A model generated the notes under the pieces. The model saw nothing but the letters and a program-made list of their open reading frames with translations, ran no database searches and was not told the DNA's origin. From Pseudomonadota bacterium (GTDB lineage Bacteria; Pseudomonadota; Gammaproteobacteria; Burkholderiales; Rhodocyclaceae), in NCBI GenBank assembly GCA_008501585.1, contig QQUN01000024.1, positions 1 through 33,344 on the forward strand: a DNA stretch of 33,344 nt, given 5' to 3'. Numbering within the stretch: the stretch's first letter is position 1; every line of letters begins with the position of its first letter. Positions 8,627-24,081 of this stretch are shown here, piece after piece. The position numbers were made by a program, and so were the translations under genes.

Positions 8627-9538
8627 TCAGGCGGCCACCAGCCACTCGCCTTCGCGCCGCGCGACGCCGGCCTTGACGAGGCTGTCGACGAGCCAGTCGG
8701 CGAGGCGCTCGGGGGTTTCGTGGAGGAAGCGGTCGTTGGCGATGCGGAACAGCGGGGTGCGGTCGAGCCAGGCGGGCAGGTCGGCCAGGGGCATGCGGCG
8801 CATGTCGAGCAGGGAGAAGGTGGTGCAGGCGCGGATGGCGTTGCGGGCCATGCGGCTGCCGTCTTCTTCGAAGGCGCGCAGGCGGGCGTAGGCGGCGGCG
8901 AGGGCTTCTTCGACTTCGACGAAGGGCGCGCCGTGGCCGGGGATGACATGGCGCACCGGCAGGCGGGCGATGGCGTCGAGCGTGCGGCGCGCTTCACCGA
9001 TGCCGTCGCCGGTGCCGAGCACGTCGGCGAAGAGGATGCCGAAGCCGTCGCGCCACAGGGCGTCGCCGGAGATGAGCACGCCGTGGTCGCGGTTGAAGTA
9101 CATCAGCGCGTCCATGTCGTGGCCGGGCGCGGCGAGGGCTTCCCAGTGCAGGCCGCCCATCTCGCGGGTGTCGCCGGGGTGGGCCAGGGTGTCGGCCGAG
9201 AAGCGGTCACCCGCCTGGCCGGCGACCGAGAGCAACAAGGCGTTTTCATCCCATTGCTGGACGGCATCGTGCATACCGGCGGGCACGGTGATGCGGCAGC
9301 CGAAGGCGCGCTGCACGGCGGCGTTGCCGCCGATGTGGTCGGAGTGCGAGTGGGTGTTGACGATGTCGGTCAGGCGCCGGCCGTCGAGCGCGCTGCGCAC
9401 CAGGGCGACAGTCTGCTCGGCATGGCTGACATAGCCGGTGTCGACCAGGATGGCGCGGTCGCCATCGAAGAGCAGGATGTTGTTGGACGACAGCCAGCCG
9501 CGCTCGAGCACATGGAGGGATTCGGGCAGCCGGCTCAT
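8627..9538 (-). CDS. MBL-fold metallo-hydrolase
   Basis: A 303-residue metallo-beta-lactamase-fold protein. The metal-binding motif HSHSDH is at residues 63-68, with later ligands in APGHDMD, ISGDALW and IPGHGAP. Residues up to about 210 form the hydrolase core, and the C-terminal 80 residues (ARLRAFEEDGSRMARNAIRACTTF ... ETPERLADWLVDSLVKAGVA) look like the small helical tail found in lactonase- and thioesterase-like members. The ATG overlaps the stop of the upstream NahD-like gene as ATGA, so the two are translationally coupled. The substrate is unknown; hydrolysis of a thioester or lactone is the likely chemistry for this subgroup. Confidence 0.85.
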   Translation of the reverse strand: MSRLPESLHVLERGWLSSNNILLFDGDRAILVDTGYVSHAEQTVALVRSALDGRRLTDIVNTHSHSDHIGGNAAVQRAFGCRITVPAGMHDAVQQWDENALLLSVAGQAGDRFSADTLAHPGDTREMGGLHWEALAAPGHDMDALMYFNRDHGVLISGDALWRDGFGILFADVLGTGDGIGEARRTLDAIARLPVRHVIPGHGAPFVEVEEALAAAYARLRAFEEDGSRMARNAIRACTTFSLLDMRRMPLADLPAWLDRTPLFRIANDRFLHETPERLADWLVDSLVKAGVARREGEWLVAA

Positions 9539-10176
9539 GACGGGCGCCGCCCCGCGGCCTCGGGCAGGGTGTCGAGCCGGCGGTACTCGGCCGAGGCGAA
9601 ATGCGCAGGGTCGGCCAGCGCCGCCAGCGCCATGCCGGTGGCGTCCGCCCCCCAGAAGGGTTCGCCGTCGACCAGCAGCGTGGGCACGCCAAACACCCCG
9701 GCCGCCAGCGCGGCCTCACCGTTGGCGCGCAGGCGCGCCTTGCAATCAGGCTGCGCCACCGCCTCGCGCGCCGCTTCGGGCGACAGGCCGGCTGCCGCGC
9801 TCAGGGCCGCCCAGCCGGCCTCGGCATTCGGGTCCTGCCCCTCGCCCCAGATGACGCGAAACATGGCCTGGATGGCGGCCAGGTCATCGGCCACCACGGC
9901 CAGGCGCAGCGCGGCGATGGGGTTGAACGGATGGGCGGGCGGGAACACCAGCGGCAGGCCGGCCTGTTCGGCGAGCCAGCGCACATGGCGGTAGGTGAAG
10001 CGCCGTTTGGCCGGAATCTCGGCCGGGCCGCGCTGGCCCCAGTGGTCGAGCAGGCCGGCGAAGACCACCGGCACCGGGCGGATGTCGGCCACGGCAGCGA
10101 CCGCGGCCAGTTGCTGCGATTGCAGGTAGGCAAAGGGCGAGATGAAATCGAAGACCCAATCGACGGTGGGGCGCAT
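9535..10176 (-). CDS. 2-hydroxychromene-2-carboxylate isomerase family protein (DsbA-like, kappa GST fold)
   Basis: A 213-residue protein of the NahD/kappa-glutathione-transferase family. The N-terminal motif VFDFISPFAYL contains the conserved Ser (residue 13) before Pro that activates glutathione in NahD. The C-terminal motif GVFGVPTLLVDGEPFWGAD is the family's cis-Pro loop. No CxxC is present, so it is not a thiol oxidoreductase. NahD itself acts in naphthalene degradation, but many relatives are found away from such pathways and their substrates are unknown. AGGAG lies upstream of the ATG at 10176. It forms a two-gene unit with the MBL hydrolase. A second, different family member is at 18113-18715. 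Confidence 0.82.
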   Translation of the reverse strand: MRPTVDWVFDFISPFAYLQSQQLAAVAAVADIRPVPVVFAGLLDHWGQRGPAEIPAKRRFTYRHVRWLAEQAGLPLVFPPAHPFNPIAALRLAVVADDLAAIQAMFRVIWGEGQDPNAEAGWAALSAAAGLSPEAAREAVAQPDCKARLRANGEAALAAGVFGVPTLLVDGEPFWGADATGMALAALADPAHFASAEYRRLDTLPEAAGRRPS

Positions 10177-10233: not shown

Positions 10234-10416
10234 TCAGTCGGTGGGCAGCGTGTCGTCCGGCGTGATCGGCACATGGTCCGCCGCTGGCGGCTGGGCGCCG
10301 GCGTCGGTCGGGTCGTCGGTGTGGTCGTTGCCGAAGATTTCGTCGGCCGAGCGGCCACAGCCGATACAGGTTTCAGAATCGGGGTCGATCTCGCAGATGC
10401 CGATGCACTCGGACAT
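10234..10416 (-). CDS. Small DUF1289-like cysteine protein
   Basis: A 60-residue protein. Its N-terminal half carries CIGICEIDPDSETCIGCGRS, the Cys-x3-Cys-x8-Cys-x2-Cys pattern of DUF1289 proteins, which probably bind a metal or an iron-sulfur centre. The C-terminal half is acidic and probably disordered (DHTDDPTDAG ... TPDDTLPTD). It lacks the usual Trp after the last Cys pair. AGGAG precedes the ATG at 10416. It lies between sbtB and the NahD/MBL pair. The function of DUF1289 proteins is not known to me. Confidence 0.7.
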   Translation of the reverse strand: MSECIGICEIDPDSETCIGCGRSADEIFGNDHTDDPTDAGAQPPAADHVPITPDDTLPTD

Positions 10417-10446: not shown

Positions 10447-10758
10447 TCAGAATTTTTCGGGCCGCAGCACCTCGACCTCGCTGACCCACATGATCATCGC
10501 GTAGTTGTCGTAGTACTGCGCCTGCAGGTGGGCCGAGATGGCGGCGGCGGTGTCGGCATTACACACCACCTCGATGCGGATGTTGCTGGAGGCGTCCCAG
10601 CCGGCATTGCGCACGCCGCGGTGGCCTTTGCCACGCGCCTCGGTGATGGTGTAGCCGTGGGCGCCAAGGCGGTCGAGGTCGCGCACCAGCGCGCTCTCGA
10701 TGGCCCCTTCGGTGACGATGGTCAGCAGCTTGCGGATACGGTCATTGGCCAGACTCAT
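10447..10758 (-). CDS. sbtB: PII-like signalling protein SbtB (lacks the C-terminal redox loop)
   Basis: A 103-residue PII-like protein. The features IVTEGAIESALVRDLDRLGAHGYTI, then GKGHRGVRN, then SNIRIEVV and YDNYAMIMWVSEVEVL, follow the cyanobacterial SbtB pattern closely (IVTE, GYTV, GKG, NVR, SN, DYAGIIYICEAEVL, from memory). SbtB binds adenine nucleotides including cAMP and controls the bicarbonate transporter SbtA. The sequence ends with LRPEKF and lacks the CGPxGC redox loop found at the C-terminus of many cyanobacterial SbtBs. The start at 10758 is only 3 nt after the sbtA stop. It is not a canonical GlnB: the T-loop tyrosine region is absent. Confidence 0.85.
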   Translation of the reverse strand: MSLANDRIRKLLTIVTEGAIESALVRDLDRLGAHGYTITEARGKGHRGVRNAGWDASSNIRIEVVCNADTAAAISAHLQAQYYDNYAMIMWVSEVEVLRPEKF

Positions 10759-10761
10759 GGT

Positions 10762-11712
10762 TCAGGCTCCCAGGAAGGCATGCACGCGCTCGGCCATCAC
10801 ATGATAGAGCGGCACGCCGACCAGCACGTTGAACGGAAAGGTGATGCCCAGCGACGCGGTCAGCGACAGCGTGGGGTTGGCCTCGGGCACCGACACCCGC
10901 ATGGCCGCCGGCACCGCGATGTACGAGGCCGAGGCGGCAAGCGTGGCGAGCACCGCCGTGCCGCCCATCGACAGCCCCAGCGCCCAGCCCAGCACCGCGC
11001 CGATCACCGCCGAGAACACCGGCATGACCACGCCGAAGCCGAGCAGGAACAGACCGTACTGGCGCAGCGAGCCGATCTGCGCGGCGGTGATCAGGCCCAT
11101 TTCGAGCAGGAAGATGGCCAGGATGCCCTTGAACAGGTCGAAGAACAGCGGCTTGATCGACACCACGCCCTCGGGCCCGGCGATCCAGCCGATGAGCAGG
11201 CCGCCGAGCAGCAGCACGATGCCCTTGCCGAGGAAAACCTCGTGCATCACCGCGCCCCAGCGCGTCTCGCGGCTCATGCCGCGCGCCAGCACGATGCCCA
11301 CCAGGATGGCCGGCACCTCGAGCACCACCAGCAGCAGCGGCATGTGGGCTTCGAAGAAGATCTCGCGGGTGCCGAAGTAGGCCACCGCCACGGCATAGGT
11401 GCCGACGCTCACCGACCCGTAGTGCGCGGCGATCGAGGCCGCATCGGCGCGCTTGAAACGGCCGAGGTGGCGCAGCACCGGGTAGGCCACCAGCGGCAAC
11501 GCAAAGCCCATCACCAGCACGGCGAGGATCTGCGGCAGCAGGTCGCCGAAAGGCTGCTTGGCCAGTTCGATGCCGCCCTTGAGGCCAATGGCCAGCAGCA
11601 GCAGGATGCTGACGAAGTCGTAGATGGCCGCGGGCAGTCTCAGCTCCGCGCGCGCCAGGCCCGCGATGAGGCCCAGCAGGAAAAACAGGATGATCGGGTC
11701 GATCGGATTCAT
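10762..11712 (-). CDS. sbtA: Sodium-dependent bicarbonate transporter SbtA family
   Basis: A 316-residue polytopic membrane protein with about ten hydrophobic segments in two inverted halves. The segment LRLPAAIYDFVSILLLLAIGLKGGIEL and the second-half SYIAVPAAMRVSVPEANPTLSLTASLGITFPFNVLVG match the SbtA (DUF897) family of sodium/bicarbonate symporters. ASYIAVPAAMR is the conserved half-site around the bicarbonate pocket. The first gene of an sbtA-sbtB pair, it begins at the ATG at 11712 with a weak GTGAGC ribosome-binding site. The neighbourhood (carbonic anhydrase, biotin carboxylase) supports bicarbonate as the substrate. The family is solid; substrate specificity in heterotrophs is less tested. 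Confidence 0.88.
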   Translation of the reverse strand: MNPIDPIILFFLLGLIAGLARAELRLPAAIYDFVSILLLLAIGLKGGIELAKQPFGDLLPQILAVLVMGFALPLVAYPVLRHLGRFKRADAASIAAHYGSVSVGTYAVAVAYFGTREIFFEAHMPLLLVVLEVPAILVGIVLARGMSRETRWGAVMHEVFLGKGIVLLLGGLLIGWIAGPEGVVSIKPLFFDLFKGILAIFLLEMGLITAAQIGSLRQYGLFLLGFGVVMPVFSAVIGAVLGWALGLSMGGTAVLATLAASASYIAVPAAMRVSVPEANPTLSLTASLGITFPFNVLVGVPLYHVMAERVHAFLGA

Positions 11713-11809
11713 GATTGCTCACATGCTTGGATCGGGCATGTTGCCCCGGCGTCGCGGTGCCCTCCCGCACCACGGGCCGGTCTAGAGACTACCGCAGTGC
11801 AAAAAGGTT

Positions 11810-12004
11810 CTACAGTCCTTGCGCCCGGGCCGGTGGCGCAGGCGCCGTCTGACGCTCGGCCACGCGCGCCAGGATGCGACGCTTTTCCGCGTCGCTGGCG
11901 CGGCTCCAGCAGGTGATCTCCTCGAGCGTGCGCGCGCAGCCCAGGCACAGGCCCGAGCGCGCGTCCATCTTGCACACGTTGATGCAGGGCGATTCGACGC
12001 TCAA
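11810..12004 (-). CDS. DUF1289 domain-containing protein
   Basis: A protein of about 64 residues with SPCINVCKMDARSGLCLGCARTLEEITCW, the standard DUF1289 pattern Cys-x3-Cys-x8-Cys-x2-Cys followed by T-x-E-E-I-x-x-W. A basic helical tail follows. The TTG at 12004 is preferred because GAGGGG lies 6 nt upstream and gives MSVESPCINVCK. A GTG at 12022 is also possible; it would overlap the end of the HMG-CoA lyase gene by 8 bp but has no ribosome-binding site. The gene ends the liu strand run. Confidence 0.78.
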   Translation of the reverse strand: MSVESPCINVCKMDARSGLCLGCARTLEEITCWSRASDAEKRRILARVAERQTAPAPPARAQGL

Positions 12005-12014
12005 TGCCCGCCCC

Positions 12015-12929
12015 TCAGACACAGGCGCCGCGCTTGGCCAGCACGGCGCGCGCCACCTTGGAGCCCGGCTCGCGACCGAGCTGGCCGCTGATCCACGCCG
12101 CCGTGTCGACCAGCCGGTTCAGGTCGATGCCGGTGTCGATGCCGAGGCCGTCGAGCAGGTACACCACGTCTTCAGTGGCCACGTTGCCCGAGGCGCCAGC
12201 GGCGTAGGGGCAGCCGCCGAGGCCGCCGACCGAGGCGTCGAACACCGCCACGCCCGTCTCCAGCGAGGCATAGATGTTGGCCAGCGCCTGGCCGTAGGTG
12301 TCGTGATAGTGGCCAGCCAGCTTGTCCGCGGGCACGCGGGCAGCCACGGCGTCGAGCATGCGGCGGGTCTTGCCCGGCGTGCCGGTGCCGATGGTGTCAC
12401 CCAGGCTGACTTCGTAGCAGCCCATCTCGAACAGCGTGGCGGCCACGTCAGCCACCGCGGCCGGGGTGATCTCGCCTTCATACGGGCAACCGAGCACGCA
12501 GGACACATAGCCGCGCACCTTCACGCCGGCGGCTTTGGCGGCCGCCATGACCGGCTCGAAGCGGACCAGCGACTCGGCGATGGCGCAGTTGATGTTCTTC
12601 TGGCTGAAGGACTCGGAGGCCGCGCCGAACACCGCCACCTCCTCGGCCCCGGCGGCCAGCGCCGCCTCGAAGCCCTTGAGGTTCGGCGTCAGCACCGGGT
12701 AGCCGACGCCGGGCAGGCGCTGGATGCGCGCCATCACCTCGGCGTTGTCGCCCATCTGCGGCACCCATTTGGGCGACACGAAGGAGGTCGCCTCGATCGT
12801 CTTGAGCCCGGCCGCGCCGAGCCGGGCGATCAGCTCCACCTTGACCGCGGTATCGATCACCTGCTTTTCGTTCTGCAGCCCGTCGCGCGGGCCGACGTCG
12901 ACGATGCGGACGTGTGTGGGCAGGCTCAT
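12015..12929 (-). CDS. liuE: Hydroxymethylglutaryl-CoA lyase
   Basis: A 304-residue enzyme that splits HMG-CoA into acetoacetate and acetyl-CoA, the last step of leucine degradation. The TIM-barrel start [14 protein letters not shown] holds the catalytic Arg-Asp (about residues 15-16), [12 protein letters not shown] follows, and the signature [15 protein letters not shown] carries the conserved Cys (about residue 240). Its length matches the family. The ATG at 12929 overlaps the stop of the methylcrotonyl-CoA carboxylase alpha gene as ATGA, showing translational coupling to liuD. Confidence 0.95.
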
Positions 12930-14926
12930 GCGCTCACCTCGAACTCGACCAGCTCGTCGCCATCACCCACCTGGTCGCCCACCGCAAAGCGGAAGGCCTT
13001 GACCGTGCCGGCCGCCGGCGCGGCGATGGTGTGCTCCATCTTCATGGCTTCGAGGATCAGCAGCGGCGCGCCCTTCTCCACCGCGGCACCGGCCTGGGCG
13101 ATGAGCGAGATGACCTTGCCCGGCATCGGCGCCAGCAGGCCGCCTTCGGCGCCACCGCCCTCGCCCGAGTGGTGCAGCGGGTCGACATTCGACAGCTGCC
13201 AGGCGCGGCCATGGAAGAACACATGGCGCTTCTCGTTGGCCGCCACCACGGTGGCGTCCATGCGCATGCCGTCGAGCTCGACCCGCATCAGGCCGCGTGC
13301 GTTGAGTTCGCCGCGCGCCTCGACCGACTTGCCATCCACCGTGAGCGTATAGCCGCCGGCGCGGTAGGCCACGTTGACCGCCTTCTGGTCCTCGCCGAGA
13401 CGGAAGATCAGGTCACGCTTGGCGGACGCGTTCAGGCGCCAGCCGTCGCGCGCATGCCAGGGCGAGAGCGGGTCTTCGTCACGGCGGGCTTTGGCCGCGC
13501 CGCGGTTGGCCTCGCGCAGCAACTCGGCCAGCGCAGCCACGTACCAGACCTCGGCCGGCGTGGCCTTGGCTTCGGGGAAGAGGTAGGCCTTCTCGCGCTC
13601 GATCAGGCCGGTGTCGAGGTCGGCATTGGCAAAGGCCGGGCAGGCGGTGAGGCGCGACAGGAAGCTGATGTTGTTCGACACGCCGACCACGCGGTACTCG
13701 GCCAGCGCCTGCAGCATGCGCGCCAGGGCGCGGTCGCGGTTCTGGTCCCAGACGATGAGCTTGGCGATCATCGGATCGTAGTGCGGGCTGATCTCGTCGC
13801 CTTCCTCGACGCCGGTATCGACCCGTACATGCAGGTTTTCGGCCGGCGGCGAGAGGTGCAGCAGCGCGCCGGTGGAGGGCAAAAAGCCCTTGTCGGGGTC
13901 TTCGGCGTAGATGCGCGCTTCGAGCGCGTGGCCGCGGATCTGCAGTTGCTCCTGGGCCAGCGGCAGCGGCTCGCCCGAGGCCACGCGCAATTGCCACTCG
14001 ACCAGGTCGAGGCCGGTGATCATCTCGGTGACCGGATGCTCCACCTGCAGGCGGGTGTTCATCTCCATGAAGTAGAAGGAGCCATCCTGGTTGGCGATGA
14101 ACTCCACCGTGCCGGCGCCCACGTAGCCCACCGCCTTGGCGGCATCGACGGCGGCCTGGCCCATGGCGGCGCGGCGCTCGGGCGTCATGCCCGGCGCCGG
14201 GGCTTCCTCAAGCACCTTCTGGTGGCGGCGCTGCACCGAGCAGTCGCGCTCGAACAGGTACACGCAGTTGCCATGGCTGTCGCCAAACACCTGGATCTCG
14301 ATGTGGCGCGGGCGGGTGATGTACTTCTCGATCAGCACATGGTCGTCGCCAAAGCTGGAAATGGCCTCGCGCTTGCACGAGCCGAGCAGGTCGAGGAAGT
14401 CCTCGGCCTTCTCGACCAGGCGCATGCCCTTGCCGCCCCCGCCGGCGGCGGCCTTGATCAGCACCGGGTAGCCGATGCCGTCGGCCTCGCGCTTGAGCAG
14501 CTCGGGGTCCTGGTCGTCGCCGTGGTAGCCCGGGGTCAGCGGCACGCCGGCCGCGCCCATGATCTTCTTGGCCTCGGACTTGGAGCCCATGGCCTGGATG
14601 GCGGCCACCGGCGGGCCGATGAAGACCACACCGGCCTCATCGCAGGCATGGCAGAAGTCTTCGTTCTCGGACAGGAAGCCGTAGCCCGGGTGGATCGCCT
14701 GCGCGCCGGTCTGCTTGGCTGCAGCGATGATCTTGTCGATCACCAGATAGCTTTCCTTGGCCGCCGCCGGACCGATCAGCACCGCCTCATCGGCCAGGCG
14801 CACATGGCGCGCGTTGGCGTCGGCCTCGGAATACACCGCCACGGTCTTGATGCCCATGCGCCGCGCCGTCTTGATGACGCGGCAGGCGATCTCCCCGCGG
14901 TTGGCGATCAGGATTTTTTCAAACAT
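12926..14926 (-). CDS. liuD: Methylcrotonyl-CoA carboxylase, alpha (biotin) subunit
   Basis: A 666-residue biotin-dependent carboxylase subunit. Residues 1-445 are the biotin carboxylase module: [17 protein letters not shown], the ATP-grasp glycine loop [11 protein letters not shown], and [14 protein letters not shown] with the catalytic region. A linker domain leads to the biotinyl carrier domain at the C-terminus, with the biotin attachment motif EAMKMEH (Lys about 629). It loads biotin from ATP and bicarbonate for transfer to 3-methylcrotonyl-CoA by LiuB. The ATG at 14926 has GGAGAC about 7 nt upstream. Location next to HMG-CoA lyase and near liuB and liuC favours methylcrotonyl-CoA over propionyl- or acetyl-CoA as the substrate. 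A palindromic repeat separates it from liuC. Confidence 0.93.
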
Positions 14927-14960
14927 ATCTGTCTCCGAATTCTTCGTTCTTGGCGTCGGC

Positions 14961-15050
14961 GTAGCCCGGATGCAGCGCAGCGGAATCCGGGGCCGGTCGT
15001 GGATCAACCGAGGCTCCCGGATTCCGGCCATCGGCCTGCATCCGGGCTAC
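14961..15050 (-). repeat. Long palindromic intergenic repeat, copy C (90 bp)
   Basis: It has the same arms as copies A and B but lies in the opposite orientation: the GCGCAGCG arm comes first on the plus strand and the arm with GGCCATCGGCC last. The centre is about 26 bp shorter and contains GGATCAACCG. It sits in the gap between liuD and liuC. Confidence 0.9.
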
Positions 15051-15070
15051 TTTCTTTGCATTCATGGTCG

Positions 15071-15859
15071 TCAGGCCTGCGGCACCCAGGCCGCCGGGCG
15101 CTTGTCGAGGAAGGCGCTCAGGCCTTCCCGGGCTTCGGGCGTGCTGCGCAGTTCGGCGATCCGGCGCGAGGTGTCCTCCACCACGGCGTCGGACACCGGC
15201 GTGTTCGCCACGGCACGGATCAGGTCCTTGGCCGCCGCCTGCGACTTCGGCCCGCCCTGCAGCAGCGCGGCGACGATCTCGGCCACCTTGTCGTCCAGCG
15301 CCTCGGGCGGCACGGTCTCGTGCGCCAGGCCCAGCTCGGCGGCGCGCGCGGCGCTGATGCGCTCGGCGCTCTGGAAGTAGCGATAGCTCTGGCGCTCGCC
15401 GATGGCGCGGATCACATAGGGGCTGATGGCCGAGGGGATGATGCCGAACTTCACCTCCGAGGTGGCGAAGAGGGCCTTCTCGCTGGCCACGCAGATATCG
15501 CAGGCCGAGGCCAGGCCCATGCCGCCGCCCAGGGCGGCGCCCTGCACGCGGGCGATGGTCGGCTTGCTCATCTCCGACAGCGTGCGCAACATGCCGGCGA
15601 GCTTGCGCGCATCGGCGATGTTCTCGTCCACGCTGGCTTCGCCGGCGGCCTTCATCCAGTTCAGGTCCGCACCGGCCGAAAAGCTCTTGCCCCGGCCGGC
15701 CAGCACCACCACGCGCACCGATTCGTCCGCGTCGAGCTGCGCGCAGGCGGCAGTGAGATCGGCAATCAGTTGGGCGTTGAAGGCGTTGTGCACATCCGGG
15801 CGGTTCATCCACACGGTGGCAATGCCGCCGTCGCGTTCGATTTCAAGCGTCTCAAACAT
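15071..15859 (-). CDS. liuC: Methylglutaconyl-CoA hydratase (enoyl-CoA hydratase family)
   Basis: A 262-residue crotonase-fold enzyme. The oxyanion-hole segments are GRGKSFSAGADLNWMK and VQGAALGGGMGLASACDICVAS; SEVKFGIIPSAISPYV is the third family landmark. In leucine degradation LiuC hydrates 3-methylglutaconyl-CoA to HMG-CoA, fitting its place between liuB and liuD. The ATG at 15859 has a very strong AAGGAGGG upstream. It begins 11 nt after liuB ends. A general enoyl-CoA hydratase activity cannot be excluded by sequence alone, but the context is convincing. Confidence 0.92.
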   Translation of the reverse strand: MFETLEIERDGGIATVWMNRPDVHNAFNAQLIADLTAACAQLDADESVRVVVLAGRGKSFSAGADLNWMKAAGEASVDENIADARKLAGMLRTLSEMSKPTIARVQGAALGGGMGLASACDICVASEKALFATSEVKFGIIPSAISPYVIRAIGERQSYRYFQSAERISAARAAELGLAHETVPPEALDDKVAEIVAALLQGGPKSQAAAKDLIRAVANTPVSDAVVEDTSRRIAELRSTPEAREGLSAFLDKRPAAWVPQA

Positions 15860-15870
15860 GGCATCCCTCC

Positions 15871-17478
<1,608 letters not shown>

Positions 17479-17508
17479 GGGTCTCCTCGTCCTTGTTCGT
17501 CCAGCTGC

Positions 17509-18099
17509 TCAGAGCTGTTGTTCGTTCTTGATGCGTCGCTCCCGCACGGGGGCGCGGTACTGCGCCATGGCCCCGAGCAGGGTGTCGATATCGTCGCTGC
17601 GCAGCAGCAGGTCGGCGTTCTCGGGCTTCATGAAGCCCTCATCCACGCCATTGGCCAGCATGCGTGCCAGCGGTGCGTAGTAGTCGTCCACATCGAGCAG
17701 GCCGATGGGCTTGCCGTGGAAGCCCAGCTGCGCCCAGGTCAGCACCTCGAAGAGCTCCTCAAAGGTGCCCAGGCCACCGGGCAGGGCAATGAAACCGTCG
17801 GACAACTCGGCCATGCGCGCCTTGCGGGTGTGCATGGAGTCGACCACCTCGAGCCGGCTCAGGCCCTGGTGGCCCACCTCCCACTCGAGCATGGCCTCGG
17901 GGATGACCCCGATCACCGTACCGCCGGCCGCCATGCAGCCATCGGCCACCACGCCCATGAGGCCGACATTGCCGCCGCCATAGACCAGCTCGATGCCGCG
18001 CTCGGCCAGCGTGCGCCCCAGTGCCGTGGCCGCCGCCGCGTACGCGGGCTTGCTGCCGTGGCGGGCGCCGCAGAACACGCACAGTCGCTTGAATGTCAT
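17509..18099 (-). CDS. LOG family protein (TIGR00730)
   Basis: A 196-residue Rossmann-like protein of the LOG family. It begins with [19 protein letters not shown], has a [14 protein letters not shown] nucleotide loop, MHTRKARM, and the hallmark [16 protein letters not shown]. Plant and bacterial LOG proteins release cytokinin bases from nucleoside 5'-monophosphates and act as nucleoside-monophosphate phosphoribohydrolases. No cytokinin pathway is implied here; a role in nucleotide housekeeping is likely. It lies within the liu run, about 30 nt upstream of liuB, and could be co-transcribed with it. Confidence 0.88.
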
Positions 18100-18112
18100 G
18101 GACCGGTTCCGT

Positions 18113-18715
18113 TCAGAAGCCGCCGGTGTCGAGCCAGCGCTCGATCTGCGGCAGGCGGTCGACGCCCCAGAAGGGCTCGCCGTCGATGATCACGAAGGGC
18201 GAGCCGAACACGCCCTTGCCGATGGCCTCGGTGCAGGCGGCCTTGAGCCGCGCCTTGACCGGCTCGCTCTTGAGCGCGTCGGCCAGCGCCTTGCCATCCG
18301 CACCCAGCGAGTCGGCGATATCCACCACCACCTCGGGCGAGGAGATGTCGCGGCCGAGCTTGAAGTAGGCGCGATACGCGGCATGCGCAAAGCGGCGCGC
18401 CAGCGCGCAGTCCTGCTCGTGCAGCCAGTAGTAGGCGCGGGCCGGCGCCTGGGTGGCGATCGGGAAGGGCGTGGGCAGGGCAAAATCGGCCCCGTGGAAG
18501 CGGGCCGAGCGCACGATGTCACGCACCGCGTAGTCGCCCTTGAGCGGCAGGTCGGTGAGCGGCTTGCCCTCCGAGACGGAATACACCACGCCGAGCAGGA
18601 TCGGATGCCAGCGCACCTTGCGGCCAAAACCGGCGGCGATGCCGTCGATTTTCTCGCTCATGAAGTAGCCGTAGGGCGAGGAGAAATCGAAATAGAAGTC
18701 GATCGGTTCGGCCAT
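18113..18715 (-). CDS. 2-hydroxychromene-2-carboxylate isomerase family protein (second copy)
   Basis: A 200-residue NahD/kappa-GST family protein. [12 protein letters not shown] near the N-terminus holds the conserved Ser (residue 13) before Pro, and [24 protein letters not shown] near the C-terminus holds the cis-Pro loop. It is clearly different in sequence from the copy at 9535-10176, so this is not a recent duplication. GGAG precedes the ATG at 18715. It is 13 nt from the LOG gene and 10 nt from the LysE gene and therefore probably part of one transcript. Its substrate is unknown; a link to acyl or aromatic catabolism is only an inference from location. Confidence 0.82.
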
Positions 18716-18725
18716 GTCGCGTCTC

Positions 18726-19352
18726 CTAGAGGTGTTTCATGCTGGCCACTTTCAGCCCGGAGGCGATGAACGCGCCACCCGCACCGATGTTGAGCCATTT
18801 GATGACCGCCGGCCGCGCCTGCAGGAAGTCGCGCAGGCGGGCCGCGCCGGCGCCCATCAGCGACATCAGCACCACGGTGATGAGCGCGTAGGTGGCGCCG
18901 AGCAGGAAGATCTGCAGCCCCAGGTTGCCCAGCGCCGGCCGCGCGTACTGCGGCAGGAAGGCGAGCATGAACACCGCCACCTTGGGGTTGAGCAGATTGA
19001 CCGTCAGGCTGCTCAGGAACACCCGCTTGAGCGGCAGCGGCGCTGCGCCCTTGAGCGGGATCAGCCCGTGCCGGCGGATGGCCTGGATGCCGACCCACAC
19101 CAGATACACCGCGCCAGCCGCGCGCAGCACGAAGAACAGGGTCTCCGATGTCGCCACCACGGCCGACAGCCCCGCGGCGACCAGCACCGAGGTGATCAGG
19201 ATGCCCAGCGCACAGCCCGCGGCCGCCGCCACGGCGGCCAGCCGCCCCTGGCCGAGGGCGCGGCCGAGCAGCATGATGCTGTCAGGCCCCGGCGCCAGCG
19301 TGAACAGGGCGGCCACCGGGATGAAGAGTGCGAAGAGGTGGAGGTCGAGCAT
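18726..19352 (-). CDS. LysE/RhtB family amino-acid exporter
   Basis: A 208-residue membrane protein with six hydrophobic segments. The start LHLFALFIPVAALFTLAPGPDSIMLLGRALGQGR has the conserved PGPD motif, and VNLLNPKVAVFMLAFLPQYA is the second family motif. LysE/RhtB proteins export amino acids or related metabolites from the cytoplasm. In a leucine-degradation cluster it may relieve excess amino acid, but the substrate cannot be read from sequence. It follows the thioesterase gene by 16 nt. Confidence 0.87.
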   Translation of the reverse strand: MLDLHLFALFIPVAALFTLAPGPDSIMLLGRALGQGRLAAVAAAAGCALGILITSVLVAAGLSAVVATSETLFFVLRAAGAVYLVWVGIQAIRRHGLIPLKGAAPLPLKRVFLSSLTVNLLNPKVAVFMLAFLPQYARPALGNLGLQIFLLGATYALITVVLMSLMGAGAARLRDFLQARPAVIKWLNIGAGGAFIASGLKVASMKHL

Positions 19353-19368
19353 GGGATCGGCTCCGGTG

Positions 19369-19806
19369 TCAGGCGGCCTTGGGCCAGAGAATCATCTGCG
19401 TGCAGCGGAACAGCGCCAGCGTGCGACCGGTGCTGCCGATCACCTCGGCGTCCCACACCTGGGTGTTGCGGCCGGTATGCGCGGCCGTGGCCACGCAGGT
19501 GATGTCGCCCTCGGTCTGGGTGCCGAGGAAGTTGCTCTTCAGCTCGATGGTGGTGAAGCTGTCGGCCCCGACCGGCAGGTGGGCGATGGTGGCAAAGCCG
19601 GCCGCGGTATCGGCCAGCGCGATCACCGAGGCGGCATGCAGGAAGCCGTTGGGCGCCAGCATCTCGGGGCGGAGGGTGATCTTCGCCTCGAGGCGACCGG
19701 CATCGAGCGCGGTCACGGTGACCCCGTACCAGCCCGGCAAGGTGCCGGGGGTGCGGGCGTTGAGCATCGCGATGGACGCGTCGGGGTGCAGTCTGTGGCT
19801 GCTCAT
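19369..19806 (-). CDS. PaaI-type hotdog thioesterase
   Basis: A 145-residue hotdog-fold thioesterase of the PaaI/YdiI type. The active-site region LAPNGFLHAASVIALADTAAGFAT carries the usual Asn-Gly-x-x-His and the Asp of LADTA. It hydrolyses acyl-CoA or aryl-CoA thioesters, releasing CoA. The ATG at 19806 (MSSHRLHPDASIAML) has GAGAG upstream; a longer open frame exists but is only antisense-type noise inside the dehydrogenase gene. A second, different PaaI-type gene is at 25294-25752. Confidence 0.85.
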   Translation of the reverse strand: MSSHRLHPDASIAMLNARTPGTLPGWYGVTVTALDAGRLEAKITLRPEMLAPNGFLHAASVIALADTAAGFATIAHLPVGADSFTTIELKSNFLGTQTEGDITCVATAAHTGRNTQVWDAEVIGSTGRTLALFRCTQMILWPKAA

Positions 19807-19838
19807 GGTTCTCTCTCTGTGCTGGGGGAGCGACCGGC

Positions 19839-20972
19839 TCAGTCGGCCAGCGCGCGGCCGATGACCAGGCGCTGGATATCGCTGGCGCCTTCGTAGATCT
19901 GGCACACGCGCACATCGCGGTAGATGCGCTCGACCGGGAAGTCGGTCACATAGCCGTAGCCGCCGTGGATCTGGATCGCGTCGGAGCACACCTTTTCGGC
20001 CATCTCGGAGGCGAACAGCTTGGCCATCGAGGCCTCCTTGAGGCAGGGGCGGCCGGCGTCCTTGAGGCTGGCGGCATGCCACACCAGCTGGCGCGCGGCC
20101 TCCAGCTGGGTGGCCATGTCGGCAAGGCGGAAGTTCACCGCCTGGTGCTCGAAGATCGGCTTGCCGAAGGTCTCGCGCTCATGGGCGTATTTCACCGCGG
20201 CTTCGAGCGCGGCGCGGGCCATGCCCAGGCACTGCGAGGCGATGCCGATACGGCCGGCTTCGAGGTTGGACAGGGCGATCTTGTAACCCTCGCCCTCGGC
20301 GCCGAGCAGCGCGTCGGCGCCCACGCGGCAGTTCTCGAACAGGATCTGCGCGGTGTCCGAGGCCTTCTGGCCCATCTTCTCTTCGATGCGCGCGACGATG
20401 TAGCCCTCGGTGTCGGTCGGCACCAGGAAGCAGGAGATGCCCTTCTTGCCGGCGGCCTTGTCGGTGACGGCAAACACGATGGCCACATCGGCCTCGCGGC
20501 CGGTGGTGATGAACTGCTTGACGCCGTTGATCACCCAGCCGTCGCCATCCTTCACCGCCGTGGTCTTGAGCGCCGCCGCGTCCGAGCCGACATGCGGCTC
20601 GGTCAGGCAGAAGCAGCCCAGCTTCTCGCCACGGGCCAGCGGCTTGAGCCACTGTTCCTTCTGCGCGTTGTTGCCGTAGCGGTTGGGAATGCCGCAGGCC
20701 AGCGAGTTCTGCACGCTGACGATGGTCGAGGTGGCGCCATCACCGGCGGCGATTTCTTCCAGCGCCAGCACCAGGCTCATGTAGTCCATGCCGGCACCGC
20801 CCCACTGCTCGGGCACGACCATGCCCAGGGCGCCAAGCTCGGCCAGCTCCTTGAGCGCCTCGCGCGGGAAGGTGTGATTGCGGTCCCACTCTTCGGCGAA
20901 GGGGGCCAGGCGCTCACGCGAGAAATCGCGCATCGCGTCGCGGATCATTTCCTGTTCTTGCGTCAGGATCAT
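19839..20972 (-). CDS. Acyl-CoA dehydrogenase (short/branched-chain type)
   Basis: A 377-residue flavoprotein. It has the FAD and CoA motifs [21 protein letters not shown] and [16 protein letters not shown], then the QIHGGYGY segment. The catalytic Glu is in [16 protein letters not shown] (Glu about 361), the short-chain dehydrogenase position. The closest type is short/branched-chain or isobutyryl-CoA dehydrogenase; it is distinct from the isovaleryl-CoA dehydrogenase at 24089. It probably oxidises a branched-chain or C4 acyl-CoA next to the thiolase. AGGAGAG precedes the ATG at 20972. Confidence 0.9.
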
Positions 20973-21037
20973 GGTGCTGCTCTCCTCTTACTCTTTTTTA
21001 TGGCGGGCGATCGGTCACCCGTCCGTGTCTCAGTCAC

Positions 21038-21127
21038 GTAGCCCGGATGCAGCGCAGCGGAATCCGGGAGCGGTGGTTGATCAACCGATGCCCCCGGATT
21101 CCGGCCTGCGGCCTTCATCCGGGCTAC
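21038..21127 (-). repeat. Long palindromic intergenic repeat, copy D (90 bp)
   Basis: It has the same length and orientation as copy C and is very close to it in sequence, with GTAGCCCGGATGCAGCGC on the left and TTCATCCGGGCTAC on the right. The centre has GGTTGATCAACCG, a small inner palindrome. It lies between the acyl-CoA dehydrogenase and thiolase genes. Confidence 0.9.
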
Positions 21128-21141
21128 GCCGGTGTTCAGAT

Positions 21142-22332
21142 TCAGGCCATCTCGATGGCCATCGCCGTGGCTTCACCACCACCGATGCACAGGCTGGCCA
21201 CGCCGCGCTTGAGGCCGCGGGCACGCAGCGCGCCGAGCAGGGTGACCAGGATGCGGGCGCCCGAGGCGCCGATCGGGTGACCCAGCGCGCAGGCGCCGCC
21301 GTTCACATTGACCTTGGCGTGATCGAGTTCCAGTTCTTTCATGGCGGCCATGGTGACCACGGCGAAGGCTTCGTTGATCTCCCACAGATCTACGTCGCCC
21401 ACGCCCCAGCCCACCTTGCCCAGCAGCTTCTGCATGGCACCGACCGGCGCGGTGGTGAACCAGCGCGGCTCCTGCGCGTGGGTGGCGTGGCCGAGAATGG
21501 TGGCGATCGGCTTGAGGCCGAGGGCGTCGGCGGTGGAGCGGCGCATCAGGGTGAGCGCAGCGGCGCCGTCGGAGATCGACGAGGAGTTGGCGGCGGTCAC
21601 CGTGCCGTCCTTGGCGAAGGCGGGCTTGAGCGAACCGATCTTGTCGAGCTTGGCCTTGAGCGGCTGCTCGTCCTTGTCGACCACCACCTCGCCGCCGCGG
21701 CCAGCGACGGTGACCGGGGTCACTTCCCAGTCGAAGCCGGTGCCGTTGATGGCGTCCTGCGCGCGGGTGGTGGAGGTGATGGCGAACTCGTCCTGCGCCT
21801 GGCGCGAGAAGCTGTAGTGGCCGGCGCAGTCTTCGGCGAAGGTGCCCATCAGGCGGCCGTTGGTCTCCTTGCCGTAGCGGTCTTCGAGGCCGTCGAAGAA
21901 CATGTGGTCGATCATCTGGCCGTGGCCAAGGCGGTAGCCGCCGCGCGCCTTGGGCAGCAGGTAGGGCGCGTTGCTCATCGACTCCATGCCGCCAGCGACG
22001 ATCACCTGATTGCTGCCGGCGAGCAGCATGTCGTGCGCCAGCATGGTGGCCTTCATGCCCGAACCGCAGACCTTGCTGACCGTGGCGCAGCCGGTGGACA
22101 GCGGCAGGCCGGCGCCCAGCGCGGCCTGGCGCGCCGGGGCCTGGCCGAGGCCGGCCGGCAGCACGCAGCCAAGAATGACCTCTTCGACCTGCTCCGGCTT
22201 GAGCCCGGCGCGTTCGACGGCCGCCGCGATGGCGGCGGCGCCGAGTTGCGGCGCGCTCAGGCTGGACAGTTCGCCCTGGAAGCCGCCCATCGGGGTGCGG
22301 GCAGCGGAGACGATAACGACGGGATCATTCAT
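21142..22332 (-). CDS. Acetyl-CoA C-acyltransferase (thiolase)
   Basis: A 396-residue thiolase. The nucleophile Cys is in TVSKVCGSGMKA (about residue 89), the His in NGGACALGHPIGASGAR (about 352) and the second Cys in SLCIGGGEATAMAIE (about 382). It interconverts acetoacetyl-CoA and two acetyl-CoA, or cleaves related 3-ketoacyl-CoAs. The ATG at 22332 has AGGAG 7 nt upstream; an open frame extends further upstream but has no protein-like composition. In this cluster it would handle the acetoacetyl-CoA that follows HMG-CoA lyase and could feed PHB synthesis. Confidence 0.93.
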   Translation of the reverse strand: MNDPVVIVSAARTPMGGFQGELSSLSAPQLGAAAIAAAVERAGLKPEQVEEVILGCVLPAGLGQAPARQAALGAGLPLSTGCATVSKVCGSGMKATMLAHDMLLAGSNQVIVAGGMESMSNAPYLLPKARGGYRLGHGQMIDHMFFDGLEDRYGKETNGRLMGTFAEDCAGHYSFSRQAQDEFAITSTTRAQDAINGTGFDWEVTPVTVAGRGGEVVVDKDEQPLKAKLDKIGSLKPAFAKDGTVTAANSSSISDGAAALTLMRRSTADALGLKPIATILGHATHAQEPRWFTTAPVGAMQKLLGKVGWGVGDVDLWEINEAFAVVTMAAMKELELDHAKVNVNGGACALGHPIGASGARILVTLLGALRARGLKRGVASLCIGGGEATAMAIEMA

Positions 22333-22370
22333 GCTGGACTCCTGATTCTCTCTGTGAGTAGGCGCGCCGC

Positions 22371-23510
22371 TCAGCGCAGCGCTTCGAGTGCCGCGGCGTA
22401 GCGCGGCACCAGGTCTTGCGGGCGACTGACGGTCAGCCCGAGATCGTTCATGAGGCCGTCCTTGAGGCCATACACCCAGCCATGGACGGTCAGCTTCTGT
22501 CCGCGCGCCCAGGCATCCTGGACCACCACGGTCTGGCATACGTTGATCACCTGCTCGACCACGTTGAGCTCGCACAGGCGGTCATGGCGCATCTCCGGCG
22601 GCAGCTCGCCGACCATCGACATGTGCTTGGTGTGCACATCCTGGACATGGCGCAACCACAGGTCGACCAGGCCGACGCGGTCGCGGTTGAGCGCGGCGCG
22701 CACGCCGCCGCAGCCGTAGTGGCCGACCACCATGATGTGCTTGACCTTGAGCACATCGACCGCGAACTGGATCACCGACAGGCAGTTCAGGTCGGTATGG
22801 ACCACCACGTTGGCCACGTTGCGATGCACGAACACCTCGCCCGGCAGCAAGCCGACGATCTGGTTGGCCGGCACGCGCGAATCGGCACAGCCGATCCACA
22901 GGTACTCAGGCGCCTGCAGGTGGGCCAGCTTCTCGAAGAACTGCGGATCGACCTCGCCCATCTGGCGTGCCCAGGCGCGGTTGTAGTCGAACAGGTGGAA
23001 CAGGTTCTCGTTTTTGACCGCGTCTTCGGACCAGGTCGACAGATCGAGCGAGAGGAAGATGGTGCCCTCGATCGGTGTCGGGTAATAGGCCGGCGCCTCG
23101 GTGAAGCCCAGCTCGCGGTAGAGCTTCACGGCAATGCGCATGGCCGGCAGGGTGTCGAGCATGATGCGCTTGTAGCCCAGCTCCTGCGCCGTGCGGATGG
23201 CCGCCAGCGCCAGGTCGCGACCCACGCCCTGGCCACGCATCGACGGCTCGACATACAGCCGCTTCATCTCGCACACACCGTCGGAGAACTTGCGGATGCC
23301 CACGCAGCCGGCAGGCCGCCCGTCCACCTCGGCGAGGAACAGCCGGCCGTCCGGCGCCGAGTAGGCGCCCGGCAGCGAGGCCATCTCGGCATCGAAATTC
23401 TGGAAGCACAGATCCACACCCAGCCAGGCCGCGTAGTTGCGGAAAAACTGGCGGACATGGTCGAGTTCAGCGGTATGCGTGGCGTCGAGCACGCGAAGAT
23501 TGATGGCCAT
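22371..23510 (-). CDS. Fused GNAT acetyltransferase / beta-carbonic anhydrase
   Basis: A 379-residue two-domain protein. Residues about 1-157 are a GNAT domain with the acetyl-CoA loop RGQGVG (92-97) and YRELGF near its end. Residues about 165-379 are a beta-carbonic anhydrase of the Can type: the zinc ligands Cys208, Asp210 (in CADSR), His264 and Cys267 (in HYGCGG) are all present. This open-type layout interconverts CO2 and bicarbonate. The single reading frame runs through both domains with no stop or frameshift, and the linker region (LSLDLSTWSEDAVKNENLFHLF) joins them naturally. Similar bifunctional proteins are known in related bacteria. The acetyl acceptor is unknown. It lies in the liu run 39 nt upstream of the thiolase. 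Confidence 0.9.
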   Translation of the reverse strand: MAINLRVLDATHTAELDHVRQFFRNYAAWLGVDLCFQNFDAEMASLPGAYSAPDGRLFLAEVDGRPAGCVGIRKFSDGVCEMKRLYVEPSMRGQGVGRDLALAAIRTAQELGYKRIMLDTLPAMRIAVKLYRELGFTEAPAYYPTPIEGTIFLSLDLSTWSEDAVKNENLFHLFDYNRAWARQMGEVDPQFFEKLAHLQAPEYLWIGCADSRVPANQIVGLLPGEVFVHRNVANVVVHTDLNCLSVIQFAVDVLKVKHIMVVGHYGCGGVRAALNRDRVGLVDLWLRHVQDVHTKHMSMVGELPPEMRHDRLCELNVVEQVINVCQTVVVQDAWARGQKLTVHGWVYGLKDGLMNDLGLTVSRPQDLVPRYAAALEALR

Positions 23511-23577: not shown

Positions 23578-24081
23578 TCATTGGGCGGCCTCCGTCGGCC
23601 GGTGCCACTCGAAACGCTGTTCGCACAGCCGGCGCCCCCAGGTGGCATCCTCGTGCGCATCTGCCAGCTGGAAACCGCTGGCTTCATACAGTCGGCGTGC
23701 CGCATCCAGCCCGGCCACCGTGGTCAGATACATCCGCTCGAAGCCGCAGGCATGGCAGTGCGCCATGGCCGAGTCGATCAAGGCCCGCCCCACGCCCTGC
23801 CCGCGCGCCGCCTCGCTGACGATGAAAAACCGCAGCCGCCCCCAGCCCTGCGGATCGCTGCCGTCGATGGCGACACTGCCGACGCGCTCATCGCCCAGCC
23901 AGGCCACGAACACCGCACTGCGCCCATCCGCCGGCGACAGCACCAGGCTCGCCAGCCCCTCGGCCACCTTGGCTTCGAAGCTCAGCGGCAGGCCGAGCAG
24001 GTCGCGGTAATAGCGCCCGTGCTCGGCCACGATCCAGCCCAGGTCACCGGCCCCCGGTGCGGCGAGTCGGATGGCGGCCAT
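23578..24081 (-). CDS. GNAT family N-acetyltransferase
   Basis: A 167-residue single-domain acetyltransferase. The acetyl-CoA loop is ARGQGVGRALID, followed by HCHACGFERMYLTTVAGLDAARRLYEASGFQL, the standard GNAT motif A/B region. The sequence resembles the C-terminal half of MarR-GNAT fusion regulators but no DNA-binding domain is present. It begins 7 nt after the isovaleryl-CoA dehydrogenase stop, so it is in the same operon. The substrate is unknown. Confidence 0.83.
   Translation of the reverse strand: MAAIRLAAPGAGDLGWIVAEHGRYYRDLLGLPLSFEAKVAEGLASLVLSPADGRSAVFVAWLGDERVGSVAIDGSDPQGWGRLRFFIVSEAARGQGVGRALIDSAMAHCHACGFERMYLTTVAGLDAARRLYEASGFQLADAHEDATWGRRLCEQRFEWHRPTEAAQ

What the first reader, a model, noticed from the sequence alone, without database searches (positions are those of the whole stretch)
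10447..23510. Bicarbonate supply genes (GNAT-carbonic anhydrase fusion, SbtA, SbtB) linked to biotin-dependent leucine degradation
Methylcrotonyl-CoA carboxylase (liuB, liuD) uses bicarbonate. The same strand run carries a beta-carbonic anhydrase with all zinc ligands, and directly after the last liu gene come sbtA and its PII-like partner sbtB. Together they would capture, import and regulate bicarbonate for the carboxylation step. The genes and their families are seen; a functional link is an inference. I am not aware of SbtAB being described as a partner of leucine catabolism.
Basis: partly seen in the sequence, partly recalled or inferred. Interest (0 to 1): 0.72.

Follow-up and report, generated by a model that had tools for sequence, protein, structure and literature searches.

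The report
Carbonic anhydrase in leucine-breakdown gene cluster
In this Denitromonas genome the leucine-breakdown genes carry a gene for a bicarbonate-making enzyme, an arrangement shared by many relatives, while the bicarbonate importer next door is a lineage-specific arrival in part of the genus and probably serves the whole cell.

Summary
liuA, just outside the stated range, belongs too. The interpretation splits. (1) The carbonic anhydrase link is real and old: a Can-type anhydrase lies within 20 kb upstream of liuB on the same strand in 16 of 59 family genomes that hold both genes and in 12 of 52 order genomes (about 0.7 and 0.5 expected); many family members have the GNAT-fused form. (2) The sbtAB link is not general: 5 of 10 genomes of the genus have it. 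In the other five a DUF1289 stretch and the metallo-hydrolase follow liuE. None of 65 other named sbtA loci has liuB or liuD in the flank held. sbtAB came with its own leader; sbtA is under purifying selection and does not track RuBisCO in the genus. Most likely the anhydrase turns CO2 into bicarbonate for methylcrotonyl-CoA carboxylase and other carboxylases, as proposed for mitochondrial anhydrases, and SbtAB is a general bicarbonate importer inserted downstream. No expression or growth data were available.

The parts
   Evidence: closest solved chains are isovaleryl-CoA dehydrogenases, E 4.7e-188; next to the CA gene in relatives
23578..24081 (-). free-standing GNAT acetyltransferase
   Evidence: Acetyltransf_1 1.9e-15; 34% identical to the GNAT half of the fusion over 128 positions
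22371..23510 (-). GNAT - beta-carbonic anhydrase (Can type) fusion, 379 aa
   Evidence: Pro_CA 7.2e-52 at residues 203-353, Acetyltransf_1 at 49-136; NF007756 carbonate dehydratase above cut-off; CADSR and HYGCGG motifs
21142..22332 (-). acetyl-CoA C-acetyltransferase (thiolase)
   Evidence: Thiolase_N 4.8e-84; NF005404 above cut-off; start chosen at the ATG of MNDPVV
19839..20972 (-). acyl-CoA dehydrogenase (AcdX), part of the conserved order
   Evidence: Pfam; conserved order
19369..19806 (-). hotdog thioesterase (4HBT)
   Evidence: 4HBT 5.6e-11
18726..19352 (-). LysE-type exporter
   Evidence: LysE 1e-26
18113..18715 (-). DsbA-fold oxidoreductase, recurrent before liuB
   Evidence: DSBA 2.3e-35; recurrent
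17509..18099 (-). LOG-like (Lysine_decarbox) protein
15871..17478 (-). liuB, methylcrotonyl-CoA carboxylase beta subunit
   Evidence: Carboxyl_trans 2.2e-156; MCC beta 3u9r 2.5e-261, second to 9tps labelled propionyl-CoA carboxylase beta 1.3e-264
15071..15859 (-). liuC, enoyl-CoA hydratase family (methylglutaconyl-CoA hydratase by position)
   Evidence: ECH_1 3.9e-55; start chosen at the ATG
12926..15031 (-). liuD, methylcrotonyl-CoA carboxylase alpha (biotin carboxylase, MCC BT and biotinyl domains)
   Evidence: 3u9s 3.3e-215
12015..12929 (-). liuE, hydroxymethylglutaryl-CoA lyase
   Evidence: NF004283 4.8e-146, above cut-off
11810..12004 (-). DUF1289 small cysteine protein between liuE and sbtA
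   Evidence: PF06945 3.7e-20
11713..11810 (-). leader of sbtA, starting GAACC-N16-GTC (its G is the last base of the DUF1289 stop codon); a possible ECF-type promoter (motif class recalled); comes with the sbtAB insert
   Evidence: present in 5 of 5 sbtAB loci of the genus, absent from the 5 loci without sbtAB; the only exact match of the searched pattern in the genome, with one match of the reversed control
10762..11712 (-). sbtA, Na+-dependent bicarbonate transporter family
   Evidence: Sbt_1 1.6e-115; 7cye 1.7e-27; dN/dS 0.04-0.16
10447..10758 (-). sbtB-like PII protein, 3 nt after sbtA
   Evidence: P-II 2.7e-24
10234..10416 (-). second DUF1289 gene after sbtB
   Evidence: PF06945 3.4e-09
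9535..10176 (-). second DsbA-fold protein, found at this site in the window and G103 only among the fetched loci of the genus
8627..9538 (-). metallo-beta-lactamase-fold hydrolase: the next large gene after liuE where sbtAB is absent
   Evidence: Lactamase_B 1.9e-25

Best explanation
Two separate things meet here. First, an old liu neighbourhood of the order that includes a Can-type beta-carbonic anhydrase. The anhydrase hydrates CO2, including the CO2 released earlier when the leucine keto acid is decarboxylated, to bicarbonate, which methylcrotonyl-CoA carboxylase (LiuB/LiuD) and the cell's other biotin carboxylases use. In many members of the window's family a GNAT domain is fused to its N terminus. 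Second, an sbtA-sbtB cassette with its own leader, inserted downstream of liuE in one part of Denitromonas and probably lost again in two species. It is a general PII-controlled Na+/bicarbonate importer rather than a leucine-specific part; its place may bring some read-through from liu transcripts. Shown: gene content, synteny, distribution, the insertion, and selection on sbtA. Inferred: transport activity, regulation, and the flow of bicarbonate to MCC.
For: CA within 20 kb of liuB in 16 of 59 family genomes and 12 of 52 order genomes with both, each time upstream and same strand, against about 0.69 and 0.53 expected (coordinates). Order liuA-CA-thiolase-AcdX-liuBCD(E) seen in families f197, f204, f2 and f177, and from the CA on in f214, and in the genus with or without sbtAB. 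In R. eutropha can is H16_A0169 (PMC3904209, passages) and the next tag, A0170, is a KT gene named in P(3HB) synthesis (PMC3734047, one passage), the same CA-thiolase pair by tag number; growth of a can deletion strain on fructose was fully recovered by added CO2. Human CA VA deficiency lowers bicarbonate supply to MCC (PMC10107955, abstract and passages), and plant beta-CA6 is proposed to feed MCC (PMC13103436, passages). sbtAB beside liuE in 5 of 10 genomes of the genus at one site, with about 415-480 nt between liuE and the metallo-hydrolase in the other five. Non-carriers G102 and G107 group with carrier G104. dS of sbtA 0.19-0.37 (5 genomes), of liuB 0.24-0.33 (4 genomes); sbtA dN/dS 0.04-0.16. 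Cyanobacterial SbtA replaces carbonic anhydrase in an E. coli mutant (PMC4275256, passages).
Against: 43 of 59 family genomes and 40 of 52 order genomes with both genes do not show CA within 20 kb of liuB on one contig (many assemblies are drafts). Of 16 class genomes outside the order with both genes, none is linked (counted by eye). The deep branches of the genus tree are weak (supports 65 and 60), so the single gain is not firmly placed. The one SbtA-like protein from a non-cyanobacterium in the passages seen, from Labrenzia, gave no bicarbonate uptake in E. coli. No expression data.
Confidence: 0.62

Rival explanations
1. One reading: CA, SbtA and SbtB form one dedicated bicarbonate supply for leucine degradation, co-regulated with liu.
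For: Same strand, short gaps (liuE to DUF1289 10 nt, to sbtA 97 nt, sbtA to sbtB 3 nt; and coordinates); sbtA kept under purifying selection in 5 genomes; MCC needs bicarbonate (established).
Against: sbtAB is absent from the liu cluster in 5 of 10 genomes of the genus and, outside the genus, not within 20 kb of liuB on one contig in the 21 other family genomes with both; own conserved leader; 0 of 65 other named sbtA loci have liuB or liuD in the flank held.
Confidence: 0.12
2. The CA-liu gene order is an inherited arrangement without functional meaning; Can is simply a housekeeping enzyme parked there. (Not exclusive of the second half of the best explanation.)
For: R. eutropha Can matters on fructose too; among the samples drawn the linkage is seen only within one order.
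Against: Distances to liuB range from 22 nt to about 18 kb, yet each linked case is upstream and same strand; linked copies exist both with and without the GNAT half.
Confidence: 0.3
3. SbtAB serves pH or Na+ stress or general low-CO2 growth unrelated to any neighbour gene, as a mobile module. (Overlaps the best explanation.)
For: A block of about 14 kb holding sbtAB, a LysR regulator, an M48 protease, a cation ATPase and a Na/Ca exchanger is 99.8-99.9% identical between two Luteimonas, one Azoarcus and one Pollutimonas record; Actinomycetota sequences nest among Pseudomonadota.
Against: The Denitromonas copies are a separate branch and lie between liuE and the metallo-hydrolase, not in that island; sbtAB also stands beside purE-purK in two loci and beside a CA-like frame in G004, which fits bicarbonate supply for carboxylation.
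Confidence: 0.3
4. SbtAB supports RuBisCO.
For: The window's genome has a full RuBisCO large-subunit match.
Against: In the genus 2 of 5 sbtA carriers and 4 of 5 non-carriers have a strong RuBisCO match (G105 and G106 are only 86% complete).
Confidence: 0.06

Closest known systems
Cyanobacterial SbtA-SbtB (Synechocystis slr1512-slr1513)
   Same: Sbt_1 transporter followed at once by a PII-like gene
   Different: No RuBisCO gene among the genes identified around it; transport untested; SbtB-like protein closest to Thermus TTHA0516 and it ends without the C-terminal cysteine loop of some SbtB proteins (that loop is recalled)
R. eutropha H16 can (H16_A0169)
   Same: Can-type beta-CA directly before a ketothiolase (KT) gene by tag number
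   Different: No GNAT domain mentioned in the passages seen; whether liu genes surround it in H16 was not read here
Mitochondrial CA VA/VB and plant beta-CA6 supplying MCC
   Same: Anhydrase thought to feed bicarbonate to methylcrotonyl-CoA carboxylase
   Different: There the link is by shared compartment; here by gene neighbourhood
Proteobacterial liu (leucine/isovalerate utilisation) cluster
   Same: liuA, B, C, D, E families all present
   Different: Carries CA, GNAT, thiolase, a second acyl-CoA dehydrogenase and, in some Denitromonas, sbtAB

Membership tests
Liu leucine-degradation cluster | isovaleryl-CoA dehydrogenase, MCC alpha and beta, enoyl-CoA hydratase and HMG-CoA lyase together | tested here: met
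Liu leucine-degradation cluster | induced by leucine or isovalerate | not testable with these tools
   no expression data
Can-type beta-carbonic anhydrase | zinc ligands and Asp-Arg pair (C-D-x-R ... H-x-x-C) | tested here: met
   CADSR at 208, HYGCGG at 264; NF007756 above cut-off
Can-type beta-carbonic anhydrase | CO2 hydration activity | not testable with these tools
   -
SbtA bicarbonate transporter | Sbt_1 family with similarity to Synechocystis SbtA | tested here: met
SbtA bicarbonate transporter | Na+-dependent bicarbonate uptake | not testable with these tools
   in the passages seen, one SbtA-like protein (Labrenzia) was inactive in E. coli
SbtB | PII-like gene next to sbtA, similar to solved SbtB | tested here: met
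   3 nt downstream; SbtB 6mm2 E 6.8e-12
SbtB | binds SbtA and adenine nucleotides | not testable with these tools
   5 of 10 in the genus; 1 of 22 in the family sample with both genes, the own genome
   43 of 59 family genomes with both genes do not show it within 20 kb on one contig

The most novel reading that the evidence does not exclude
Leucine catabolism in this bacterial order has a built-in CO2 recycling step: the CO2 lost from the leucine keto acid is caught by the clustered carbonic anhydrase and handed as bicarbonate to methylcrotonyl-CoA carboxylase, with the fused GNAT domain tuning the enzymes by acetylation; part of Denitromonas added a PII-gated bicarbonate importer to the same gene run.
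Probability: 0.15. Interest if true: 0.6.

Novelty: new variant of a known kind. Interest (0 to 1): 0.38.

Why it matters
It gives a bacterial counterpart, open to genetics, of the human and plant link between carbonic anhydrase and leucine breakdown, and separates that old link from a lineage-specific transporter insertion that a single-genome reading would mistake for part of it. It also shows SbtAB as a travelling module outside the cyanobacteria, whose role in heterotrophs is open.

Tried and rejected
RuBisCO as the partner of sbtAB: not supported by distribution in the genus. A regulon for the leader motif: one exact match of GAACCTTT-N12-14-GTCT in the genome, with one for the reversed-pattern control, so no support. 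Promoter or terminator between liuE and sbtB: no sigma-70-type site; two terminator-like sites (0.5 expected), of which the one on the genes' strand lies inside sbtA. Plasmid records with the GNAT-CA fusion: 65 records matched, 0 cover 80% of the query. The full fusion was not searched for in genomes outside the family; the order and class searches used the CA half only. Papers on CA within bacterial liu clusters: the listings (10 of 20 papers listed) show none that I could recognise from titles and abstract starts; the library lacks most subscription journals, so absence from print is not claimed. The first SbtA tree held L062 read in a broken frame; it was rebuilt without L062, L070, L074 and L082. 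The sbtAB neighbour survey took 141 of 148 picked ORFs from 38 loci (7, several of them long, left out by hand to shorten the call); the ORFs came from a crude longest-ORF script, so wrong-strand ORFs are among them. Five members matched Sua5, of which I identified three (L022, L037, L102); L037 and L102 carry the same island. The CA-like frame next to sbtA in G004 has one TGA inside and was not followed further. The first chosen strand for liuA was wrong (no hit); liuA was then compared with solved structures only.
Full report
What is there. The window is contig 36 of a 4.29 Mb genome. Its genus is inferred to be Denitromonas: SbtA is 96-97% identical in D. ohlonensis and D. iodatirespirans. 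On the minus strand, from 25261 down to 8627, runs one series of genes: liuA, GNAT, GNAT-CA, thiolase, acyl-CoA dehydrogenase, hotdog thioesterase, LysE, DsbA-like, LOG-like, liuB, liuC, liuD, liuE, DUF1289, sbtA, sbtB, DUF1289, DsbA-like, metallo-hydrolase. Gaps are at most 169 nt (with the thioesterase filling the long one). sbtA starts 97 nt after the first DUF1289 gene; sbtB starts 3 nt after sbtA. The carbonic anhydrase keeps the C-D-x-R and H-x-x-C motifs, and the GNAT half keeps a GQGVG motif at residue 93 (its role in acetyl-CoA binding is recalled).

The carbonic anhydrase. In a family sample of 101 genomes, 89 have a match to the fusion query and 67 a close liuB. Of 59 with both, 16 have the CA within 20 kb of liuB, each time upstream on the same strand; about 0.69 would be expected by chance for a 4 Mb genome, while 43 do not show it. 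One more, G014, has a CA fragment and a partial liuB on one contig but fell below the liuB threshold and is not counted. In an order sample of 200 genomes, 12 of 52 with both are linked in the same way, 9 of them outside the family. Fetched stretches show liuA-CA-thiolase-AcdX-liuB-C-D, with liuE following where the stretch reaches it; in L109 liuA is not in the stretch. In those stretches from other families the CA match starts at residues 160-173 of the fusion query, so no GNAT half is seen there. Within the family 25 of 101 genomes match over nearly the whole fusion (counted), while some linked copies lack the GNAT half (L095, L096, L097). In G010 a lone GNAT sits between liuD and liuE. In 16 class genomes outside the order that hold both genes none is linked (counted by eye; CA threshold 1e-25).

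SbtAB. In the genus 5 of 10 genomes have SbtA, each time between liuE and the metallo-hydrolase. In the other five about 415-480 nt lie between those two genes, aligning to the DUF1289 region. The extra DNA begins with a leader GAACC-N16-GTC, present in 5 of 5 carriers. Of 45 named sbtA loci examined, the 3 Denitromonas have it close to the start; of the other 42, two have a match further upstream. On a tree of four liu-cluster genes, non-carriers G102 and G107 group with carrier G104 (support 100), and G060, G101 and G106 form a separate branch; the branches that join G105 and the outgroup G067 have supports of 65 and 60 only. This fits one gain and a later loss, but a transfer into G104 is not excluded. 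sbtA has dS like liuB and dN/dS of 0.04-0.16, so it is maintained. In the family sample 22 genomes have both sbtA and liuB, and only the own genome has them within 20 kb. Of 68 named loci, the 3 from this genus carry liu; the other 65 show no liuB, liuD or CA in the flank held, which is short for some. In the genus 2 of 5 carriers and 4 of 5 non-carriers have a strong RuBisCO match.

Where sbtAB lives elsewhere. Neighbours are mixed (141 ORFs from 38 loci). In L046 purE-purK precede sbtAB and in L055 purK-purE follow it; PurK uses bicarbonate (established knowledge). In G004 a CA-like frame with one internal TGA lies 43 nt upstream of sbtA. A block of about 14 kb around sbtAB is 99.8-99.9% identical between two Luteimonas, one Azoarcus and one Pollutimonas record. 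These fit a module that moves and is useful in several settings. They do not prove transport: in the passages I saw, an SbtA-like protein from Labrenzia was inactive in E. coli, while six cyanobacterial ones replaced carbonic anhydrase there (PMC4275256).

How it most likely works. Leucine breakdown releases CO2 at the keto-acid step and consumes bicarbonate at MCC (established pathway). Uncatalysed hydration is slow, so a clustered anhydrase would close the loop; reduced bicarbonate supply to MCC is reported for human CA VA deficiency (PMC10107955, abstract and passages), and a supply role is proposed for plant beta-CA6 (PMC13103436, passages). The nearest studied bacterial case, R. eutropha Can, acts beyond leucine use (PMC3904209, passages), so the window's CA probably serves all carboxylases, with leucine use as one demand. 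The window's genome also has a second, more distant CA match on contig 70 (40% identical). SbtAB would add uptake of external bicarbonate when CO2 is scarce. The step from neighbourhood to function is inference throughout. The explanations listed are not mutually exclusive, so their odds do not add to one.

Verdict. Observation confirmed. Interpretation partly supported: yes for the anhydrase as a conserved neighbour, no for SbtAB as a conserved partner of leucine catabolism.

Noticed in passing
L037:6692-20945 (also L038, L039, L040; L102 is probably the same contig as L038): A block of about 14 kb with Sua5-like, LysR, sbtAB, M48 protease, P-type cation ATPase, TerB-like and Na/Ca exchanger genes is 99.8-99.9% identical between Luteimonas, Azoarcus and Pollutimonas records: a recent mobile island, unless shared contamination.
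   Followed up: partly
L046:8252-10933 and L055:10001-12944: sbtAB stands next to purE and purK, which come before it in one locus and after it in the other; PurK consumes bicarbonate.
   Followed up: partly
L022:8732-9778: A Sua5-type threonylcarbamoyl-AMP synthase gene, also a bicarbonate user (recalled), lies just upstream of sbtA in Pseudomonas sp. CC6-YY-74.
   Followed up: no
L111:3589-4071: In G010 a lone GNAT gene related to the fusion's GNAT half sits between liuD and liuE, without a CA in the stretch fetched.
   Followed up: no
window 20973-21141: The 169-nt gap between thiolase and acyl-CoA dehydrogenase holds an imperfect inverted repeat with GTAGCCCGGAT ends, like a dispersed palindromic repeat (seen by eye in the sequence printed).
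   Followed up: no
window 9535-10176: A second DsbA-fold gene is present after sbtB in the window and G103 but not at this place in the other fetched loci of the genus.
   Followed up: no
L035, L051 and L053, just upstream of sbtA: An amidohydrolase gene ends within 45 nt of the sbtA start or overlaps it in these three proteobacterial loci.
   Followed up: no
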